Positions 1 to 9,516 of a DNA stretch of 64,000 nucleotides are shown here, in pieces; the first letter of the stretch is position 1, and each line of letters starts with the position of its first letter. This stretch comes from Candidatus Brocadia pituitae (GTDB lineage Bacteria > Planctomycetota > Brocadiia > Brocadiales > Brocadiaceae): the NCBI GenBank assembly GCA_017347445.1, contig AP021856.1, forward strand, positions 3,356,613 through 3,420,612, written 5' to 3'. Position numbers and translations under genes: made by a program. The notes under the pieces were generated by a model that ran no database searches, was not told the DNA's origin, and was given only the letters and a program-made list of their open reading frames with translations.

Positions 1-1280
1 CCATTAACAATTCTGGTAATCAGGAAAGGGCCAGGTAAAGAATCAGGAACAATCCGACTCCCTCGTTCTTGTTCCAGTCTCAAATGGAGCACGGCATTTG
101 CCAAAGGCTCAAATAAGAATCCATGCTGTGTTTTTTGTTTTTCTTTTTTTCGCAATTCATCAAGCGCCACACCTATTAATAACCGCATGACGTCAGCCCA
201 TGTCCTTGACTGCCAGTCCCATAAGCTATCTTCTACATGCTCACGTTTTAATAACTTTTTATACCATTCCCAGACCTTTTTATATCGGGTATCCTGCTGA
301 AGGACATAATTTGGCCGAATACCATGAGGTGGTTTCGCAACCTCTTCAAAGATAGTTTCTTTCAGGGAAGTATTACAAATCCATTTATAACTCTGTACGG
401 CCATTGCCCTAGTGGATTCCCTCTTGTTCTGAGTAACTTCACCCTGTAAGTAACGTGATGATTCAAGGTAGCACCGGTTAATGAAATCCTTCAGTACCTG
501 ATTTTCAAGGGTATTAAAGGATTCCTTCCGAACTACTGCAAGAAGTCTTTGTTTGTTTCCTGCCTTTTCTTCTTTCGTTCTTCCTGGCTGCTGCACATAC
601 CACCGCAGACAATGCACATCGCTTTCCTGAAAACGATGAATAGGGGCAAAATCGCGGCAACGTAAAAGGATTTTTCTCGCAGAGGCTACTGTTACTGGCA
701 GGCGATTTATCATATCTTCTGCTATGCTTACTATTAAAGCCTTTCTCGGCTCTCTTGTCGCATCTTTTGCTATCCCGCTCAAATATCCAAGAACAACCGA
801 CCATGAAATTTCTGAAGTATATTCCCATATAGAATCAGTAGCTTTATCACACAAGTCATCAAAAACCTGAGACCAAGCATCAACGTATTTGGCTATGGAA
901 GTTTTTTGAGAGAGACTTGCACTACCAGGAATAAAGCTTATAAACCTTGCTGCCGCATCTCTTGCATTAAATTCAACATCAAAGGTTTTATCGGCAATAC
1001 GAATTCTTAATTTTTTTAGTGCTGCTTGACCCGCTAAAATTCCGTGGGGAGTTTCATATACCTGATAACGTGCATTATCATAGGAAGTTCCTAATTGCTT
1101 GAATTGTTCCATGCGTGAAGGGATATACAACTTGGCTTCATGAGATATCGATAAAACGGGACTACCACAGAATGAAAATTCAATACAGCCGCCCGTTAAA
1201 CTTATGCTCTCTTCGGGTATTTCAACCGACCACGGCCAGAAATGGAGTTGGATTTCAATTTCTTCCAGAAAATTTGGCAT
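1..1280 (-). CDS. DUF2357-domain protein, McrC-like partner (partial, 3' end outside window)
   Basis: An open minus-strand frame of about 426 codons begins with MPNFLEEIEIQLHFWP and runs off the left edge without a stop, so the C-terminus is not visible. An in-frame TAG lies three codons before the chosen ATG, so the gene cannot start earlier. The middle contains the stretch KESFNTLENQVLKDFINRC, which resembles the conserved core of DUF2357 proteins that accompany McrB-type ATPases. In that family a PD-(D/E)xK nuclease often follows at the C-terminus; here that part would lie outside the window and cannot be confirmed. It is the last visible gene of a four-gene minus-strand operon, 137 bases after the McrB-like gene. 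Likely role: nuclease or adaptor subunit driven by the McrB-like motor. Family assignment is from motif memory. Confidence 0.72.
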   Translation of the reverse strand, partial: MPNFLEEIEIQLHFWPWSVEIPEESISLTGGCIEFSFCGSPVLSISHEAKLYIPSRMEQFKQLGTSYDNARYQVYETPHGILAGQAALKKLRIRIADKTFDVEFNARDAAARFISFIPGSASLSQKTSIAKYVDAWSQVFDDLCDKATDSIWEYTSEISWSVVLGYLSGIAKDATREPRKALIVSIAEDMINRLPVTVASARKILLRCRDFAPIHRFQESDVHCLRWYVQQPGRTKEEKAGNKQRLLAVVRKESFNTLENQVLKDFINRCYLESSRYLQGEVTQNKRESTRAMAVQSYKWICNTSLKETIFEEVAKPPHGIRPNYVLQQDTRYKKVWEWYKKLLKREHVEDSLWDWQSRTWADVMRLLIGVALDELRKKEKQKTQHGFLFEPLANAVLHLRLEQERGSRIVPDSLPGPFLITRIVN

Positions 1281-1417
1281 TTTTGTCTATTTGGATGCGG
1301 AAACAATACTGAAACAAGTTCAGTACATAGTACAGCATGACGGACTAAGGATTTCATTTGTCACCCTGAACTTTTTTCTAGGTTTCTGTTTCGGCAATCT
1401 CTATAAGTTTAAAATTA

Positions 1418-3553
1418 TCAAACACGCATATCGTCCAGAGAACGGGTAACTCCCCTCCATACAAACGTGCCCATAGAACGATCTTCCATACTTTGTGAAA
1501 AAGCTCGTGATAGTTCTTCATCTCTTAATTCGTCAATCAAGCGATGTACAATATCCAAACTTTCACTTAAACATGAACCTATATCAATACCCCGTAATTT
1601 AGGGATAATCTTTTGTTCTATTTGATCAGCAAATGCAATTTTATGTGTACGTCCATCGTCTACACTTGGATAATTTGCAACATACTCACGCATTGCCTGT
1701 TGAACACGGTGCCCAAAAGGTCTTCCAACTTTTTCCAATGCGTCATTTACCTGGATAATCCACTTATTTACATCATTCATCCAAGAGTCATTTGAAGAGT
1801 GTCTCTTTATCCATTTTTGCCATACATCAAATGGGAGGAATTTATCCTGTGTTTGATTTCTTGTTGTAGTGTTTTGAATCATACCACGATTGTTAGGTGG
1901 TTTACCAAATCTTAATACATTGGCACGGTCAAGCACCTTATCAGACAATGTCTGTGTGGATTCATCTTCATTCATAGTTCCAACAAAAATGACATTTCTT
2001 CCTACCCACAATCGAAATTCACTCTTTTCATTTTTGCCTTTCTCTTTTCCAGCACTACTGCGTGGTCCTGCCTCTAACACAAATTCTGCCACATTTCTTT
2101 CAGTTGCATCTTTTTCATTTTTCACTACCCAACGTAGCTCCAATTTAGAAAGGAATTCACTAAAATAGTATTCAATGCGTGCAAGGTTCATTTCGTCCAA
2201 CAAAACGAGTAATATCCTCTCCGATCTTTTATCGATCCCATCATCCTTGAAGTTATACGTATCCATACGAATAAGGGATCGTGCCAGTTCTGTTGCCTTG
2301 TATTTATGCTCCATATAATTGTAAAATCCAAAGAGGTCGTGAGGAGAGTCCCATCTCGGTTGTATCGATATCACAAGACTATGCATTCCCATAGTCTTAG
2401 CATATTCAATTGGTAAACGTGTTTTCCCGGTACCGGAGACACCCGCCAATACAGTGAGCGGGTTAATACCATTAATTTTTAGGGACGTATGAAATGCCCA
2501 GAGCGTTCTCTTTGGGAAATAGAGTCCTTGATTTTGCAATGATTGCCATACATTTCTGAGAGTGGAATTCTCATCTTCCTCGCGTTTGCCTCCCGGAAAA
2601 ACTCCGGCATCAAGGCATTTTGGTTCAACATCAAAGAGATCGGCATACCTACTTGCTGCATCCACATCTGTCCCCACTTCTTCTTTTAGAATTTCTAGCT
2701 TCTTCTTGAAACTTTCGATATCACCCTTTAACTTACCTTTTTCTTCTTCAAGCTCTCTTTTCTCTTTGAATAAATTATCTCTATCAATCCTTACACGATC
2801 CTTTTCGGCAATTAATTCTTCTAATGGAATAATATCAGCCTTTGCCCTTGCTAATTTTTCGCTGATTTGTTCAAGTTCATTTCGTTTAGTATTAAGCTTT
2901 TCCTCTATTGCAGAAATCTCTCCAAACAAACTCTGATGTTTTATTTCGTATTGTGCAATATTTTGTAAAAGATTATCAAATTTCTTTTTTTCTTCTTCAT
3001 ATCGAAGAATAACATCACGTAACACATGTTGTTTACTTTCAGCTTCATTTTGAACTTCTTTAATTTGATTTTGAATTCGCTCAAGCAATGCTTTTCCATC
3101 TGTTATTTCATTCGTAATCCGATCACGATCTTGGGCAAGTGTCGAGATAATATTTTGAAGGCTCGTTGATTCCTTACTCAGGTCGTCTACCTTTTGCTGT
3201 TCTTGTGCAGCCTTTGTCTGAAGATTTACAAGTTCTTGACGTAATAATTCTTGCTGTTGCCGTTCAGCCTCCAATCGTTGCAATTCTTCCTTATTTTTAT
3301 CCCACCAATCCCGACATTGCTTAATATCAGCTTCTAATATCTCTTTTTCAGCCGCCAGGTCAGCCACATCTTTAGAGTCCTTAAGTGCTGTCTTAAAGCG
3401 TTTGTGATACCATGCATACATGCCACAAGCCAACAGTACAAGTATTAAGCTCAATCCGGTCATCAATCCCCAAATAGAGGTCGGTAAAAAAGGGATTTCT
3501 ATTGATTGGACGGTATTTGCCATCATTATTTGGGTAAAAACATGAAATGACAT
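1418..3553 (-). CDS. Membrane-anchored coiled-coil McrB-family AAA+ NTPase
   Basis: 711 residues. A hydrophobic segment at about 27-47 is probably a membrane anchor. Residues about 55-295 are a long, charged coiled coil. The rest is an AAA+ domain: Walker A GVSGTGKT at 371-378, Walker B LVLLDEMN at 449-456 followed by LARIEYYFSEFL, and the McrB-type sensor GTMNEDESTQTLSDKVLDRA near 525-544 with a likely arginine finger in LDRA. The DEMNLA and MNxxD motifs mark the McrB GTPase branch rather than other AAA+ proteins. AAGGAG lies about 10 bases before the ATG. It sits 14 bases after the coiled-coil gene and before the DUF2357 gene, as expected for an McrB/McrC-type pair. Inferred role: NTP-driven motor of a type IV-like restriction or RNA-targeting defence complex at the membrane. 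A membrane anchor is unusual for classical McrB. Confidence 0.88.
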   Translation of the reverse strand: MSFHVFTQIMMANTVQSIEIPFLPTSIWGLMTGLSLILVLLACGMYAWYHKRFKTALKDSKDVADLAAEKEILEADIKQCRDWWDKNKEELQRLEAERQQQELLRQELVNLQTKAAQEQQKVDDLSKESTSLQNIISTLAQDRDRITNEITDGKALLERIQNQIKEVQNEAESKQHVLRDVILRYEEEKKKFDNLLQNIAQYEIKHQSLFGEISAIEEKLNTKRNELEQISEKLARAKADIIPLEELIAEKDRVRIDRDNLFKEKRELEEEKGKLKGDIESFKKKLEILKEEVGTDVDAASRYADLFDVEPKCLDAGVFPGGKREEDENSTLRNVWQSLQNQGLYFPKRTLWAFHTSLKINGINPLTVLAGVSGTGKTRLPIEYAKTMGMHSLVISIQPRWDSPHDLFGFYNYMEHKYKATELARSLIRMDTYNFKDDGIDKRSERILLVLLDEMNLARIEYYFSEFLSKLELRWVVKNEKDATERNVAEFVLEAGPRSSAGKEKGKNEKSEFRLWVGRNVIFVGTMNEDESTQTLSDKVLDRANVLRFGKPPNNRGMIQNTTTRNQTQDKFLPFDVWQKWIKRHSSNDSWMNDVNKWIIQVNDALEKVGRPFGHRVQQAMREYVANYPSVDDGRTHKIAFADQIEQKIIPKLRGIDIGSCLSESLDIVHRLIDELRDEELSRAFSQSMEDRSMGTFVWRGVTRSLDDMRV

Positions 3554-3567
3554 AATAGCATTTCTCC

Positions 3568-4776
3568 TTATTGTTTAGTTGCTTTTACTGTTTCATCTTT
3601 TGGTAATGAGTTGATAGCTTTACTTAAACTATCAAATTCTTTTTGGAGTTTTATATTAATCTCCTGAAGCTCCCCTATTTTTTTAATTGCGCCCGATGCA
3701 TCTTCCTTTAATTTCATAAATGTCTCTTGCAAACCTGATTTGTCAGCAGCGAAACCCGCCGCACTACTTTCTATCTGTTTAAGAAGCGTTACAAATTTAC
3801 TCTGTATCTCTGCCATAATTGTTTGTTTTTGCTGAAAACTATCTGTTTCCTTAATCATAGTATCGAGTAATTTACTTGATTGATTAGACGCGCTGGACAG
3901 TTGTTCAATATTCGTTTTTAACGTAATTGTTGCTTGATTCGTATCATTACTCAAATTATTTGCAGTGTTTTTAAGATTTATTACCTCCTGATCGAGTTTA
4001 GAACGAATATCTTGAGTAGCATCCTCAAACATCTGGTAAGCGCTCTTCAAATTAACCTTTGCTTCATTTTGAAACTGTTCAAACTTAGCAGAACCGGTTT
4101 TCAAATTTACAATTATATTTGAAAATTCAGTATTAATTTTCTGAAGCTCATCTTCGCGAATCTTTAAACGATTAATTTCAGCATTAAGAGAATTTTTTTC
4201 CGCTTGTAATTTGTTTATTTCTTCTTGCCGGGTATTTACATCGGAAGTATATACCTTAATTTTAGATTCAAACGCGCTGGATTCATTATTCAATTTTTTC
4301 TGATAAATAAGTGCATCGTCACACGCCTTTTTTCTTTCATTGAGTAAATTTTCTGAAGTTTTCAATTTGTTTTCATAAAATTCATTGTCTGATTTTAGCC
4401 TATTTACTTTTTGCTCGTTGAGTTTCACATCTTCAACAAACTGATTCCGTCTTATTTCTAATGCGCTAACATCATTTTTTAAAGTATTAACTTCGCCTTG
4501 AAACTCTGCTTTTTTTATTTCTAAATCCGATATTATCTTTTGCAATTCTGGCAACTGTTCTTTAAGCGAAGTAAAGTTCTGTTTTTCAGCTTCAAATGAT
4601 GCCTTTTCTCTTTCAAGATTTATTATCTTCCACGCTGATATGCTTTGTAAAAAGAATACAATCCCAAGAATACCTAAAAGTGTCATACCTGTTGGAAAAC
4701 CACGATCCAAATATGACCCCTTGCGTTCTTTTGGCGTTATATGTGGGGTATTTTCATTTTTTGCTGTTTCTACCAT
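3568..4776 (-). CDS. Membrane-anchored long coiled-coil protein of the defence operon
   Basis: About 402 residues from the ATG giving MVETAKNEN. A GTG nine bases earlier is possible, but GGAG sits at proper distance from the ATG and too close to the GTG. One transmembrane segment follows (roughly GMTLLGILGIVFFLQ). Nearly all the remainder is heptad-like, rich in Glu, Lys, Asn and Leu, with no enzymatic motif. The start overlaps the stop codon of the upstream helicase gene, so the two are translationally coupled, and the McrB-like gene follows after 14 bases. The shared plan of N-terminal membrane helix plus coiled coil with the McrB-like protein suggests that the two associate through their coiled coils at the membrane. 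It could be a structural scaffold or sensor. I recognise no named family. Confidence 0.8.
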   Translation of the reverse strand: MVETAKNENTPHITPKERKGSYLDRGFPTGMTLLGILGIVFFLQSISAWKIINLEREKASFEAEKQNFTSLKEQLPELQKIISDLEIKKAEFQGEVNTLKNDVSALEIRRNQFVEDVKLNEQKVNRLKSDNEFYENKLKTSENLLNERKKACDDALIYQKKLNNESSAFESKIKVYTSDVNTRQEEINKLQAEKNSLNAEINRLKIREDELQKINTEFSNIIVNLKTGSAKFEQFQNEAKVNLKSAYQMFEDATQDIRSKLDQEVINLKNTANNLSNDTNQATITLKTNIEQLSSASNQSSKLLDTMIKETDSFQQKQTIMAEIQSKFVTLLKQIESSAAGFAADKSGLQETFMKLKEDASGAIKKIGELQEINIKLQKEFDSLSKAINSLPKDETVKATKQ

Positions 4777-4777
4777 A

Positions 4778-7700
4778 CTATTCACTCCATGCCTTTAAAA
4801 TTTTATTGACACAATCGTCCAAATTCTCGCGAATTTGATATACCCAAAAACGCATAACTTTCCAATCCGCACCTTGCAATTGGATATCACGCCAAACATC
4901 GTCCCTTTTCCTCGTTCCATCAGGATTGCGATGGTAACTATCGCCGTCGACTTCTATATCAATTTTCTTTTTTTCATCACGAATAAGTGCCATATCAAGC
5001 CGACGTCCCATTATGTGATATTGAGGTTCGGGCTCCAATCCTTTTTCTTTTAAGGCATTATATAAAACTTTCTCCCACGGTGACTCATGCGGATGCCAGC
5101 GAGATTGAATACCCGAACCCTTTTGAATAGTATCTCTCCTTGAAAGTGCAAGTTTTTCAAGATGGGGAATACCAGACTGCGAAACCCATGATTTGTTTCC
5201 TACCACATGGAGAACTGCACGCGCACGACTCACCGCAACGTTCATCAAGTTTGCCGTATTCCTTATAAACCCTCTTGAGCCCAGTGGCATATCAGGACCT
5301 ACACACAAGCTCATAACCATAACGTCACGCTCATCACCTTGGAAACCGTGGGCTGTATCAACGAGCAGGTGTGTACGCATTCTTTGCTCTAAAGGGATCT
5401 CCTGACATAAAGCATCATACAAACGAATCTTTTGTTGAACAAATGGCGTTACAACACCAACGGTACCTTCGAATTGATTTTCCAGCAGTAGGCTTTTCAT
5501 GATACCAACAACACAAGCCACTTCCCCCGGAGCAATACACCCATGAGGCCCTGCACTCTTTATCTCAGAAACAACCTCTGTCCAATGTATTCCAGGCTTT
5601 ACATTTCTAGGAATATTTAAACGTTCTGTTGCCGTTAGAACTCGAAGTTGTCCTCCATAAAAGTTTTGATTAGAATATTCTGCAATCTCAGATGTTGATC
5701 TATACGTCTCTTTGAGCATAACCGGATTTACACTATTCGTCTGAGCAAAGAGATCATAGAGAGATGTGTCCGGGTAAGAAAATCTCTGTTCATTATTTAC
5801 CTGGGTAAGTCCGTGGCGCTTTCTAAGAAGCGCATCTCTTGATCCCTTAATTTTTGTTACGTGGGAAAGTTGTTGCGGGTCACCCACAACGCCAACCCGC
5901 CTGGCTCGGAATAAAATCGGTATAGCTGATGGTATATCACATTGACTTGCCTCATCTATTATTGCAAGGTCAAAAAGCCCGCTTAAAAGTGGAAACTTTG
6001 ACCCTACCGATAAATTGGTAACTGCCCATAGTGGAAAATGTTTAAGGATATAAGGTGTATAATTTGCGAGAGCCATCTGTACAGCATTTCTATCTTGCTC
6101 GTCAGAAACTGGCTGATCCAATCCTCTTAATGCAGACTTGAGCGATGCAAGAGATTCACGATCCGCATCTCCAGGCAAGCCACTTCTGCGTGAAATATCT
6201 AACCGAAGGATATCCTGAAATATTTTTTCTAATTCTTCTGAGATTAATTTTATATTCTCCGTCAGTTCATTAAGCGCTGGCATATTCTTTAGCTCTTCTT
6301 CAATTGGTTTTGCCTCTTTTTTCAGTGCACAATATCTGGCCGCTACAATTAACTGTTGCAGGATTTCTGATAAATTGCGTAACCCATCATAATCCTTATG
6401 TTGTGGAATTTCCGACCAGCACGGACAACTATTTTGCATAAATTTACGAAGTCGATTGGTCATCCTGTGAAGGAAAATATTCTTAAATTTTCCCCAGAAA
6501 CGGTCCAACATGGATACTTTCTTTTTTACTCTCAAGTGACCAATACTACGTTCTAATCTTTCAACAATTTTTACAGGAAACGTATCAGAACTATTATTAA
6601 GTTCTTCTATCATACTGAGACTCCAACCCTCTGAAGTATTCTCCATGTATTGCCCTAGGCTTCCGAGACGGTCACCCAGTTGCTGAATCTTGTCGACCTG
6701 CATACCGTATTCACCTCGCTTTTGGAGTAAGTGCATAACTCTGGATTGCACCTTTTGCCATCGTTCTTTTGCAGTTTCATCGTATTCCATGATCAACAAT
6801 TGCTTTATTGCTTCTTCAAAACCAAAATTAAGGGATGGGTCTTTCTTTGAATTTGCACGACTAACCAGTGGTCGCCCATTGTCCAAAACCAGCCTATCGA
6901 CAACTGCATCTATCGCTTTATGATTACGACTTGAAAATAGGACGTTTTGATCTCTTAGTCTTGCATTAGCCATTGACACGGCAACAACCTGGCTTTTCCC
7001 AGTACCCGGAGGCCCTGTAACTACGGTTAGATTCTCAAACAGCAAAGATGCTATACACTGTCTCTGCTCCCCGTTTAATTGGTCAGTTTCAAGCACTGCA
7101 CACTCATGAATACTTTCTTGTGATGTTATAGATTCTTGAAAAGAATCAGAGCCTTGTTCCCGATTTTTAAAAATAAATCTCAATGCAGTTTGATCTAACT
7201 GCGCATCATTGCATGAAACGATTTTAGCAAGCTCTTTTAACAATGTCTTTGTATATCTTGTCCTATTTCCAATCATCAATACTGTCTTATTATGAATGCC
7301 GCTGGCAGGTTTTCTGAGGAAATAAGACGATACGCCTTCAGGTAAAAGCGGTTCCCGTAGTTTTTCTGAAAAAAACTTTGTAACTCCGCTAGCAAGTGTT
7401 TTGAGGTCTGGTGTATCCATGAATCTGCTCCCGTCACCAAAGGATTCATCAATTTGGCCACGGTCCATTAAACCACATGCGGCCAAGAATGCCCTCTGTT
7501 GTTCAGATTGCTTTATTGCATAACTTAACCAATCCAAATTAACCTCAGGACATGGATCATCGCAGGTAATCTGGAAGCCATTAGTATCGTGTGTCACGGT
7601 AAGCTGATAAGTAAAAATGGGTTTCATAAATACACTTTCTATTCCATCAGCATCAGATTTTGTCCATATCTGTAAAGGATACCCTAATAAAAGCACTCCC

Positions 7701-8305
7701 GATTCTTCTAGCAGGCTAAGATTCCTTGCAAAACCTTGTAAATTTTGACTCAAAGGGATATGCATTCTCCACATTTGACCAACTTTGGGATACCAATAAC
7801 CAACCTTATCTAAAAATACAAATCGTTTCCCACAATCATCTAAATAGCAAGATGCCTCACACCCCTCATCATTTTTAACACAGTCAGCATAATAACCGAG
7901 TAGTTTACGGAATGTACCCCACGGGCCAAAAAATTCTGCTGGTTTTTGGGTTACCATTTTATTTTCAGTGGGAGTGGTAATATTATTTAATATACGATTT
8001 TTACTGGGTGACCAGGTAGGACTTATTTCTGAAAAGGGCAATTGTGTTGATGTTGTAGTCGTATTTGAAAGTGAAGATTGTATTTTAATCGATGGGGAGG
8101 TATTCGTTGTTTTAGGAGCAGTTGTAATCCAACGACCTCGTTCGAGGCGAACTACACCTTCAGACTGAAGTGTTCTCAACTCTTGCAGTACCTCGTATTC
8201 GGCTAACTTCAATGATCTGGCATGCAGTCTTGTTCGAAGCTCAGCCGAAGTAAACCCAACTGAGTTTTCTTTTAAAAATTGAATTATTACTTCTTTTCTA
8301 ATCAT
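4778..8305 (-). CDS. SF1 (Upf1/DNA2-like) helicase with N-terminal winged helix and C-terminal DUF559/Vsr-like nuclease
   Basis: About 1175 residues. The N-terminal 65 residues look like a winged-helix domain (FTSAELRTRL, VLQELRTLQSEGVVRLERGRW). Walker A GPPGTGKS is at about 435-442, and motif Ia (SSRNHKAIDAVVDRL) follows. Walker B IIDEASQCD is near 789, with GDPQQL after it. Motifs V and VI appear as DTAHGFQGDERDVMVMSLC and NVAVSRARAVLHVV. The last 100 residues carry RRLDMAL, IEVDGDSYH and RKRDDVWRD, typical of DUF559/Vsr-like PD-(D/E)xK nucleases. A GTG four codons upstream is an alternative start; the ATG giving MIRKEVI is preferred. As first gene of the operon it probably unwinds and cuts DNA or RNA for the McrB-type complex. 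Upf1-like helicases with nuclease tails are known partners of McrB-like coiled-coil systems. Confidence 0.88.
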   Translation of the reverse strand: MIRKEVIIQFLKENSVGFTSAELRTRLHARSLKLAEYEVLQELRTLQSEGVVRLERGRWITTAPKTTNTSPSIKIQSSLSNTTTTSTQLPFSEISPTWSPSKNRILNNITTPTENKMVTQKPAEFFGPWGTFRKLLGYYADCVKNDEGCEASCYLDDCGKRFVFLDKVGYWYPKVGQMWRMHIPLSQNLQGFARNLSLLEESGVLLLGYPLQIWTKSDADGIESVFMKPIFTYQLTVTHDTNGFQITCDDPCPEVNLDWLSYAIKQSEQQRAFLAACGLMDRGQIDESFGDGSRFMDTPDLKTLASGVTKFFSEKLREPLLPEGVSSYFLRKPASGIHNKTVLMIGNRTRYTKTLLKELAKIVSCNDAQLDQTALRFIFKNREQGSDSFQESITSQESIHECAVLETDQLNGEQRQCIASLLFENLTVVTGPPGTGKSQVVAVSMANARLRDQNVLFSSRNHKAIDAVVDRLVLDNGRPLVSRANSKKDPSLNFGFEEAIKQLLIMEYDETAKERWQKVQSRVMHLLQKRGEYGMQVDKIQQLGDRLGSLGQYMENTSEGWSLSMIEELNNSSDTFPVKIVERLERSIGHLRVKKKVSMLDRFWGKFKNIFLHRMTNRLRKFMQNSCPCWSEIPQHKDYDGLRNLSEILQQLIVAARYCALKKEAKPIEEELKNMPALNELTENIKLISEELEKIFQDILRLDISRRSGLPGDADRESLASLKSALRGLDQPVSDEQDRNAVQMALANYTPYILKHFPLWAVTNLSVGSKFPLLSGLFDLAIIDEASQCDIPSAIPILFRARRVGVVGDPQQLSHVTKIKGSRDALLRKRHGLTQVNNEQRFSYPDTSLYDLFAQTNSVNPVMLKETYRSTSEIAEYSNQNFYGGQLRVLTATERLNIPRNVKPGIHWTEVVSEIKSAGPHGCIAPGEVACVVGIMKSLLLENQFEGTVGVVTPFVQQKIRLYDALCQEIPLEQRMRTHLLVDTAHGFQGDERDVMVMSLCVGPDMPLGSRGFIRNTANLMNVAVSRARAVLHVVGNKSWVSQSGIPHLEKLALSRRDTIQKGSGIQSRWHPHESPWEKVLYNALKEKGLEPEPQYHIMGRRLDMALIRDEKKKIDIEVDGDSYHRNPDGTRKRDDVWRDIQLQGADWKVMRFWVYQIRENLDDCVNKILKAWSE

Positions 8306-8469
8306 TTCCAATTGCACTATGCAGGAGGTATACTATCTTTGTAAATAACTCAGCATGGCTTTTGCTATTCATATCAGCTCTGCAGAAAGTTTAGCGCAGA
8401 AATTACAAATCATTTTCCTCTATTTCAGCAATTTTCATGATTGCCTATAAGAAACCTAATTTTAAATCT

Positions 8470-9516
8470 TTATTTCCATTCACCAGAACACTTATCCGTT
8501 CTTTTCTTACTGTTTCTCTGCTCCATATGTTTAACCGTATTCCATATTACATTCAAGTGCCCTGCTATAAACAGATTCAACTCAATATAGGCATTGCAAA
8601 AACATCCCTTACATTTTGGGGTACGAATGCTTTCAAAGGCATTTTTGAATCCCAGCCGCCTTCCATTTGCTCCACACTGAGAACCAACAAAGAAATGACA
8701 GGGATATACCATCCCGTCGGAACCCACGGCGCAAAAATTCATACCTGCCCTGCAGTGAAGATGATTCGTATCAGGCCAATTTTGCAGAATATATCGAAAA
8801 TAACTCACGGAGTTAACGATCGGAGCCCCTTTTTTTTTCTGAAGGATCAAATTATTAATAGCCCCTTTAAAAGATGCTTCATCTGCGCTAAGGTGAGCAA
8901 TGGTATCTTTTGCTGCGCTTAAGGTATGGTCGAAAACCGGCATGAACATCACCTTCACCTGGTTATCTACAGCAAAATCGAGCAGGAAGGGAAGCTGGCT
9001 GACATTGCCTTTTGTTATTACGGCATTGATCCACACCGGAAGCTGAGCTTCATGGGCAGCATGGATTGCATTCTGTACGTGATTGAAGGAACCTTTCATC
9101 CCTCTCACGGTATCATGAATTTCCGGAGGGCCATCCAAACTGAGCAAAAGCAGGTCGAGGTGTTTAAGGCCGTCGATTTTTTTTGGAACCAGCGCCCCGT
9201 TGGAAAACAAGGTGGTCGTTATCCCTTTCTGATGCGCATAAGAAACGATGCTGCCCATGTCTTCCCGAAGCAGTGGTTCTCCTCCGGTAAATCCAATGCG
9301 CCTGATTCCCAGGCCAGAAAATTCATCGATCATCTGGAAAATCTCCCGGGTAGTCATTTCTTCCGAAGGGGTGTTATAGGTATTACAATAACCGCATCGC
9401 GAGTTACAGCGGTTGGTAATGACAAAGCTGGCCGATAACAGGAATTTTTTACCGGTAAATTTCGATAAAAATAGCCTTCCAAAGGTCTTTAACTGTTTAT
9501 ATACAGCAAAATTCAT
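8470..9516 (-). CDS. Radical SAM protein with SPASM-like C-terminal cysteines
   Basis: 348 residues. CNSRCGYC (Cys37, Cys41, Cys44) is the CX3CX2C motif that binds the SAM-cleaving 4Fe-4S cluster, and GFTGGEPLLRED matches the SAM-binding GGEP motif. C-terminal cysteines (CRAGMNFCAVGSDGMVYPC and KCKGCFC) resemble a SPASM/Twitch auxiliary-cluster region. This architecture occurs in peptide-maturation and lipid or sugar modifying radical SAM enzymes, so the substrate cannot be deduced. It lies at the downstream end of a minus-strand group with a methyltransferase, a B12-type radical SAM protein and a glycosyltransferase, but an S23 cassette separates it from them. It is probably part of the same pathway, perhaps a modified lipid or glycan. 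Confidence 0.85.
   Translation of the reverse strand: MNFAVYKQLKTFGRLFLSKFTGKKFLLSASFVITNRCNSRCGYCNTYNTPSEEMTTREIFQMIDEFSGLGIRRIGFTGGEPLLREDMGSIVSYAHQKGITTTLFSNGALVPKKIDGLKHLDLLLLSLDGPPEIHDTVRGMKGSFNHVQNAIHAAHEAQLPVWINAVITKGNVSQLPFLLDFAVDNQVKVMFMPVFDHTLSAAKDTIAHLSADEASFKGAINNLILQKKKGAPIVNSVSYFRYILQNWPDTNHLHCRAGMNFCAVGSDGMVYPCHFFVGSQCGANGRRLGFKNAFESIRTPKCKGCFCNAYIELNLFIAGHLNVIWNTVKHMEQRNSKKRTDKCSGEWK

What the first reader, a model, noticed from the sequence alone, without database searches (positions are those of the whole stretch)
1..8305. Four-gene McrBC-like defence operon with two membrane-anchored coiled-coil proteins
One tight minus-strand operon encodes an SF1 helicase with an N-terminal winged helix and C-terminal PD-(D/E)xK nuclease, a membrane-anchored coiled-coil protein, an McrB-type AAA+ protein with membrane helix and coiled coil, and a DUF2357 (McrC-like) protein. 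As I recall the CoCoNuT literature, such coiled-coil McrBC relatives with Upf1-like helicases are predicted to target RNA. The shared anchor-plus-coiled-coil plan of two subunits suggests a membrane-tethered complex, and the separate coiled-coil subunit may make this an unlisted variant.
Basis: partly seen in the sequence, partly recalled or inferred. Interest (0 to 1): 0.8.

Follow-up and report, generated by a model that had tools for sequence, protein, structure and literature searches.

The report
Membrane-anchored Type III-B CoCoNuT defence operon
A planctomycete related to the anammox bacterium Jettenia carries a complete five-gene copy of an already catalogued but untested bacterial immune system (Type III-B CoCoNuT); what the published text does not mention is that two of its five proteins carry likely membrane anchors in every copy examined.

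Summary
The operon has five genes, not four: the window edge cuts the DUF2357 gene, and a fifth gene (862 aa) follows it. Gene order and domains match the published Type III-B CoCoNuT: CnuH (N-terminal winged helix, UPF1/SEN1-like helicase, C-terminal Vsr/MTES_1575 nuclease), separate coiled-coil CnuA, CnuB (McrB GTPase with the CoCoNuT NxD motif), CnuC (DUF2357 with no catalytic PD-(D/E)xK motif) and CnuD (Hsp70-like in the literature). Eight relatives (Jettenia, three other planctomycetes, three rhizobial plasmids, an integrase-bearing viral contig) have the same order, and their CnuB proteins form one clade with the window's (99/96). A congeneric genome has an empty site: 49 bp where this genome has 11.57 kb holding exactly these five genes. 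So "unlisted variant" is refuted. The membrane anchors are the unlisted part: an N-terminal hydrophobic helix occurs in both CnuA and CnuB in 9 of 9 loci and in the one III-C CnuB, but in none of four III-A CnuBs. Flanking charges suggest opposite topologies (CnuB coil inside, CnuA coil possibly periplasmic), which argues against the two coils simply pairing. No RNA-only nuclease was found, so the target is open. AF2 models failed (pLDDT 35).

The parts
4778..8317 (-). CnuH: winged helix + UPF1/SEN1-like SF1 helicase + C-terminal Vsr/MTES_1575-type PD-(D/E)xK nuclease (1179 aa)
   Evidence: Pfam AAA_11/AAA_12/MTES_1575; PDB profile hits SEN1 2e-40, UPF1 (NAM7) 5.6e-33, endonuclease-like 3hrl 8e-6; motifs located; 8-member alignment
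8108..8317 (-). probable winged helix at the CnuH N-terminus (residues 1-70)
   Evidence: 9-sequence profile; marginal PDB hits (E 0.01-0.8), largely winged-helix proteins such as MarR-type, TFE, LexA
4793..5074 (-). nuclease domain of CnuH (residues 1082-1175; invariant WE, LD, EVDG)
   Evidence: MTES_1575 51.6 bits; invariant in 8 of 8
3568..4785 (-). CnuA: N-terminal membrane helix + long coiled coil (405 aa), overlaps the CnuH stop
4633..4689 (-). CnuA membrane helix (residues 33-51)
   Evidence: KD 1.85, shuffle p 0.009; present in 9/9 loci
1418..3553 (-). CnuB: N-terminal membrane helix + coiled coil + McrB-type GTPase (711 aa)
3419..3475 (-). CnuB membrane helix (residues 27-45)
   Evidence: KD 2.13, shuffle p 0.003; present in 9/9 III-B loci, absent in 4/4 III-A
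1964..1972 (-). NxD signature (NED) of the CoCoNuT branch of McrB GTPases
   Evidence: VGTMNEDE at residues 524-531
1..1280 (-). CnuC: DUF2357 (McrC-like) protein, cut by the window edge; full length 575 aa at L001:6166-7893. Followed outside the window by CnuD (862 aa, L001:3585-6173)
   Evidence: DUF2357 31.0 bits; profile match to III-A CnuCD 2.3e-19
1..8513 (-). in-window part of the 11,573-bp stretch (L001:3554-15126) replaced by 49 bp in congeneric genome G378

Best explanation
This is a complete Type III-B CoCoNuT, a five-gene McrBC-derived defence cassette. Shown: gene content and order, GTPase phylogeny, motifs, the empty site, and membrane-anchor-like segments in CnuA and CnuB. Inferred: CnuB forms a GTPase ring held at the inner membrane by its N-terminal helix, with the coiled coil as a spacer; CnuC stimulates GTP hydrolysis as McrC does for McrB; CnuD (Hsp70-like) and/or CnuC recognises the invading nucleic acid or stalled translation complexes; and the CnuH helicase-nuclease, the only part with an intact nuclease motif, unwinds and cuts the target near the membrane. 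CnuA is the second membrane element; its helix could relay an envelope or entry signal. Whether the target is RNA or DNA is not decided. The stated confidence is for the identity as Type III-B; I would give the membrane-tethered mechanism as a whole about 0.5.
For: Five genes in one direction, CnuH-CnuA-CnuB-CnuC-CnuD, the published III-B content. Same order in eight other loci. NxD motif in every III-A/B/C CnuB compared. III-B GTPases form a clade at 99/96, next to III-C. CnuC matches the DUF2357 part of III-A CnuCD (2.3e-19) and CnuD matches the region after it (4.1e-9). Helicase and nuclease motifs intact in CnuH. Membrane helices in CnuA and CnuB 9/9, in III-C CnuB, not in III-A. Empty site of exactly these five genes. 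The Rhizobium leguminosarum copy lies beside a Shedu nuclease and restriction-modification genes; another copy lies on an integrase-bearing viral contig.
Against: I found no paper in the searched library reporting an experiment on any CoCoNuT of Types I-III. Membrane helices are called by hydropathy only, and the CnuB call in L003 is weak (KD 1.48, p 0.065). AF2 models of CnuC and CnuD failed (pLDDT 35), so the inactivated nuclease fold and the Hsp70 fold are not confirmed here. Against DnaK itself, CnuD shows no profile similarity (E 0.12), only against a DnaK-related family (1.4e-4).
Confidence: 0.9

Rival explanations
1. Membrane-entry DNA restriction: III-B acts on phage DNA as it enters, not on RNA. 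The membrane-held GTPase and CnuA place the wHTH-helicase-Vsr nuclease at the site of genome injection, in the manner of membrane-linked defence systems such as Zorya (recalled, not tested).
For: The only intact nuclease seen is Vsr/MTES_1575-type, a family usually DNA-specific (general knowledge); the CnuH N-terminus looks like a winged helix; no HEPN hit among the family hits of the five proteins, and the 11.57-kb insert holds no further gene for one; both anchors conserved.
Against: The helicase is closest to RNA/DNA helicases SEN1/UPF1; CnuD is related to the Hsp70-like part of III-A systems, which carry RNases (PMC11090510); membrane location has not been measured.
Confidence: 0.4
2. RNA-targeting system as published: CnuD brings the complex to aberrant or viral RNA or ribosomes, and CnuH degrades RNA; anchors only set location.
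For: Published prediction for Types III-B/III-C from CnuD similarity; UPF1/SEN1-like helicase.
Against: No RNA-specific nuclease or cold-shock domain among the family hits; the paper itself says III-B RNA targeting can only 'perhaps be inferred'.
Confidence: 0.45
3. An unlisted CoCoNuT subtype.
For: Two membrane anchors are not mentioned in the published text; published III-B is primarily from Alphaproteobacteria, here it is in Planctomycetota.
Against: Every listed III-B gene is present in the same order and the GTPase nests with rhizobial systems of III-B architecture; the anchors are in the rhizobial copies too.
Confidence: 0.03
4. A non-defence housekeeping membrane complex.
For: The immediate neighbours in this genome are not defence genes.
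Against: Patchy: in own genome only among 11 of the genus; empty site; copies on plasmids and a viral contig, one beside Shedu and restriction-modification genes.
Confidence: 0.07

Closest known systems
Type III-B CoCoNuT (Bell et al. 2024, PMC11090510; primarily Alphaproteobacteria)
   Same: Five genes: CnuH with wHTH and fused Vsr nuclease, separate coiled-coil CnuA, NxD CnuB, DUF2357 CnuC without catalytic motif, separate CnuD; no TerY-P in the cassette
   Different: Host phylum (Planctomycetota); membrane helices of CnuA and CnuB not mentioned in the paper's main text or listed in its domain legends (supplements not readable here)
Type III-C CoCoNuT (architecture of Synechocystis plasmid pSYSX, L054)
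   Same: Hydrophobic N-terminus + coiled coil + NxD GTPase in CnuB; separate DUF2357 protein
   Different: PLD-family protein in the operon; no Vsr-fused helicase and no anchored CnuA next to it; GTPase branches outside the III-B clade
Type III-A CoCoNuT (architecture of Enterobacter and Photobacterium plasmids, L058, L073)
   Same: NxD CnuB with coiled coil; UPF1-like helicase; DUF2357
   Different: CnuC-CnuD fusion, TerY-P genes, CnuB without a membrane helix
E. coli McrBC
   Same: GTPase plus DUF2357 partner logic
   Different: Active McrC nuclease, NxxD motif, no helicase, coiled coils or anchors (literature; not compared here)

Membership tests
CoCoNuT (NxD branch) | McrB GTPase with NxD motif, usually followed by E/D | tested here: met
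   VGTMNEDE
[quoted passage not shown]
   Heptad periodicity z mostly 3-9 over residues ~92-275; SMC/Rad50/myosin coiled-coil profile hits
Type II/III CoCoNuT | UPF1-like SF1 helicase CnuH with a large helical insertion after Walker A | tested here: met
   SEN1/UPF1 profile hits; Walker A at 435, DEAS at 788, ~350 residues apart. Helical nature of the insert not modelled
Type III-B CoCoNuT | Vsr-like nuclease fused directly to CnuH | tested here: met
   MTES_1575 51.6 bits, invariant EVDG motif
Type III-B CoCoNuT | wHTH at the CnuH N-terminus | tested here: inconclusive
   Marginal profile hits, largely to winged-helix proteins
Type III-B CoCoNuT | OB-fold in CnuH | not tested
Type III-B CoCoNuT | Separate coiled-coil protein CnuA with no other recognised domain | tested here: met
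   Own gene in 9/9 loci; only coiled-coil-type hits
Type III-B CoCoNuT | CnuC with DUF2357 but no catalytic PD-(D/E)xK motif | tested here: met
   DUF2357 in 7/7; no conserved Lys or ExK after it
Type III-B CoCoNuT | Inactivated nuclease fold and IG-like domain in CnuC | tested here: inconclusive
   AF2 model failed, pLDDT 35
Type III-B CoCoNuT | Separate Hsp70-like CnuD | tested here: inconclusive
   Separate gene: met. Matches III-A CnuCD 4e-9; DnaK-related 1.4e-4 but DnaK 0.12; PDB best hits Hsp70, E 0.02; AF2 failed
Type III-B CoCoNuT | No TerY-P module | tested here: met
   Cassette bounded by the empty site holds only five genes
Type III-B CoCoNuT | GTPase in the III-B clade | tested here: met
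   99/96 clade; reference members typed by architecture, not by the authors' accessions

The most novel reading that the evidence does not exclude
[quoted passage not shown] In III-B the two anchors have opposite topology: CnuB's coil and GTPase inside, CnuA's 350-500-residue coil in the periplasm, so that CnuA senses an envelope event such as phage attachment or genome entry and signals through the membrane helices to the GTPase and helicase-nuclease.
Probability: 0.25. Interest if true: 0.65.

Novelty: new member of a known kind. Interest (0 to 1): 0.4.

Why it matters
CoCoNuTs were defined by computation and I found no experiment on Types I-III in the searched papers. Conserved membrane anchoring in III-B (and in the III-C example) would change where these systems are thought to act and offers a clear test: location and topology of CnuA and CnuB. 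It also makes the RNA-versus-DNA question testable in a subtype whose only recognised intact nuclease is the Vsr-type domain of CnuH. The empty site shows that the unit of transfer is exactly five genes, which tells experimenters what to clone.

Tried and rejected
AF2 of Jettenia CnuD and CnuC with 2-3-sequence alignments gave pLDDT 35; no fold search was run on them because it would be meaningless. The CnuC profile search against PDB gave only chance-level hits, mostly T-cell receptor chains. CnuA by tblastn against plasmids found nothing with the window copy; position in the operon and a profile were used instead. PF04411 search of the own genome was uninformative, as its controls did not ring. 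A first ORF filter made it look as if G019 fused CnuC to CnuD; a profile search found CnuC as a separate overlapping ORF, so the fusion was dropped. CnuA-profile hits in CnuB proteins were put down to generic coiled-coil similarity. Promoter and terminator scans of the locus found no more sites than shuffles.

Full report
Observation. The four minus-strand ORFs described are present and nearly contiguous. The whole genome is held (4.08 Mb, one contig), so the sequence left of the window could be read: the DUF2357 gene is 575 aa (L001:6166-7893) and overlaps a fifth gene of 862 aa (L001:3585-6173). The operon therefore has five genes.

Identity of the parts. Gene 1 (1179 aa) carries SF1 helicase domains and a C-terminal MTES_1575 nuclease. 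Its family profile is closest in PDB to SEN1 and UPF1, and its C-terminus to an endonuclease-like protein, 3hrl. Walker A, DEAS, GDPQQL, QG and SRA motifs and the nuclease EVDG motif are intact. Its N-terminus gives marginal hits, largely to winged-helix proteins. Gene 2 (405 aa) is a membrane helix plus coiled coil. Gene 3 (711 aa) is a membrane helix, coiled coil and McrB-type GTPase with MNEDE, i.e. the NxD motif. It scores just below the Pfam AAA_5 cut-off but matches PADLOC candidate PDC-M26A at 6e-41. Gene 4 has DUF2357 (31.0 bits against a cut-off of 23.3; 7/7 family members) and no conserved Lys or ExK afterwards, so no catalytic PD-(D/E)xK motif is seen. Gene 5 has no Pfam hit. Its profile's best PDB hits are Hsp70 chains at E 0.02. 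It matches the part of III-A CnuCD that follows DUF2357 (4.1e-9) and a DnaK-related family (1.4e-4), but not DnaK itself (0.12). AF2 gave no usable model.

Comparison with the literature. Bell et al. 2024 (PMC11090510) define Type III-B CoCoNuT by a CnuH with N-terminal wHTH and a Vsr nuclease fused to it, a separate coiled-coil CnuA, NxD CnuB, CnuC with an inactivated nuclease, a separate CnuD, and no TerY-P. The window's operon fits on every point that could be tested. The paper places III-B primarily in Alphaproteobacteria.

Relatives. The same five genes in the same order occur in Candidatus Jettenia ecosi (L002), three further planctomycetes (L003, L059, L061), Rhizobium leguminosarum and Sinorhizobium meliloti plasmids (L055, L056), a Rhizobium tropici plasmid (L057, helicase N-terminus missing beside an IS21 element) and a viral contig with a phage integrase (L078). 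A tree of GTPase domains places all nine together at 99/96, with III-C as nearest and III-A beyond. Among 11 genomes of the window's genus only this one gave a strong, extended CnuB match; a second had a short, distant match.

Empty site. In congener G378 the two flanking genes are about 100 bp apart. Alignment shows 92.9% and 94.2% identical flanks with 49 bp between them, against 11,573 bp here (L001:3554-15126), holding exactly the five genes. This supports one mobile unit. Direction (gain or loss) is not proven, but absence elsewhere in the genus favours gain.

Membrane anchors. In all nine III-B loci both CnuA and CnuB begin with a hydrophobic stretch (best 19-residue KD 1.5-3.1; shuffle p at most 0.01 except CnuB of L003, 0.065). 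The III-C CnuB has one; four III-A CnuBs have none. The paper's text mentions transmembrane helices only for other systems and for accessory proteins, and its domain legends list none for III-B. Flanking charges: no or one Lys/Arg before the CnuB helix in all nine, with net charge equal or more positive after it, so the coil and GTPase are probably inside. For CnuA the side before the helix is the more positive in eight of nine, which by the positive-inside rule suggests the coil outside; differences are small in several planctomycetes. This is inference from hydropathy and charge, not a topology measurement. If correct, the two coils lie on opposite sides of the membrane and cannot pair with each other.

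Mechanism. Most likely a membrane-held GTPase ring (CnuB with CnuC) coupled to target recognition (CnuD, CnuC) and to a helicase-nuclease (CnuH). RNA targeting is published for CoCoNuTs generally, but the paper says it can only 'perhaps be inferred' for III-B, and no RNA-only nuclease turned up here. DNA restriction near the membrane is about as likely. All of this paragraph is inference.

Verdict. Real, complete, and a new member of a known subtype, in a phylum outside the one where the paper mainly found it. The conserved double anchor is a modest, testable addition.

Noticed in passing
L078:1022-13599: An IMG/VR contig carries a complete five-gene III-B CoCoNuT about 1 kb from a phage integrase gene, suggesting that these systems travel on integrative elements or proviruses.
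   Followed up: partly
L054:11315-20500: Synechocystis plasmid pSYSX (also in PCC 6803, L091) holds a III-C-like operon whose CnuB has an N-terminal hydrophobic stretch; a model organism for testing.
   Followed up: partly
L067:5858-12781: A planctomycete contig has a CnuC tail, CnuD, then CnuH, i.e. the helicase at the 3' end: permuted gene order; the contig edge limits the view.
   Followed up: no
L068:65-3837: CnuD split over two overlapping ORFs beside a cut CnuC: probably a broken copy.
   Followed up: no
L057:5042-9683: In R. tropici CIAT 899 the helicase ORF lacks about 300 N-terminal residues and lies just downstream of an IS21 element; the system is probably inactive there.
   Followed up: partly
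window:9681-10064: A 23S rRNA-intervening-sequence (four-helix bundle) protein gene of 127 aa near the operon.
   Followed up: no
window:1418-3553: CnuB matches PADLOC candidate PDC-M26A (6e-41); no paper in the library names PDC-M26.
   Followed up: partly
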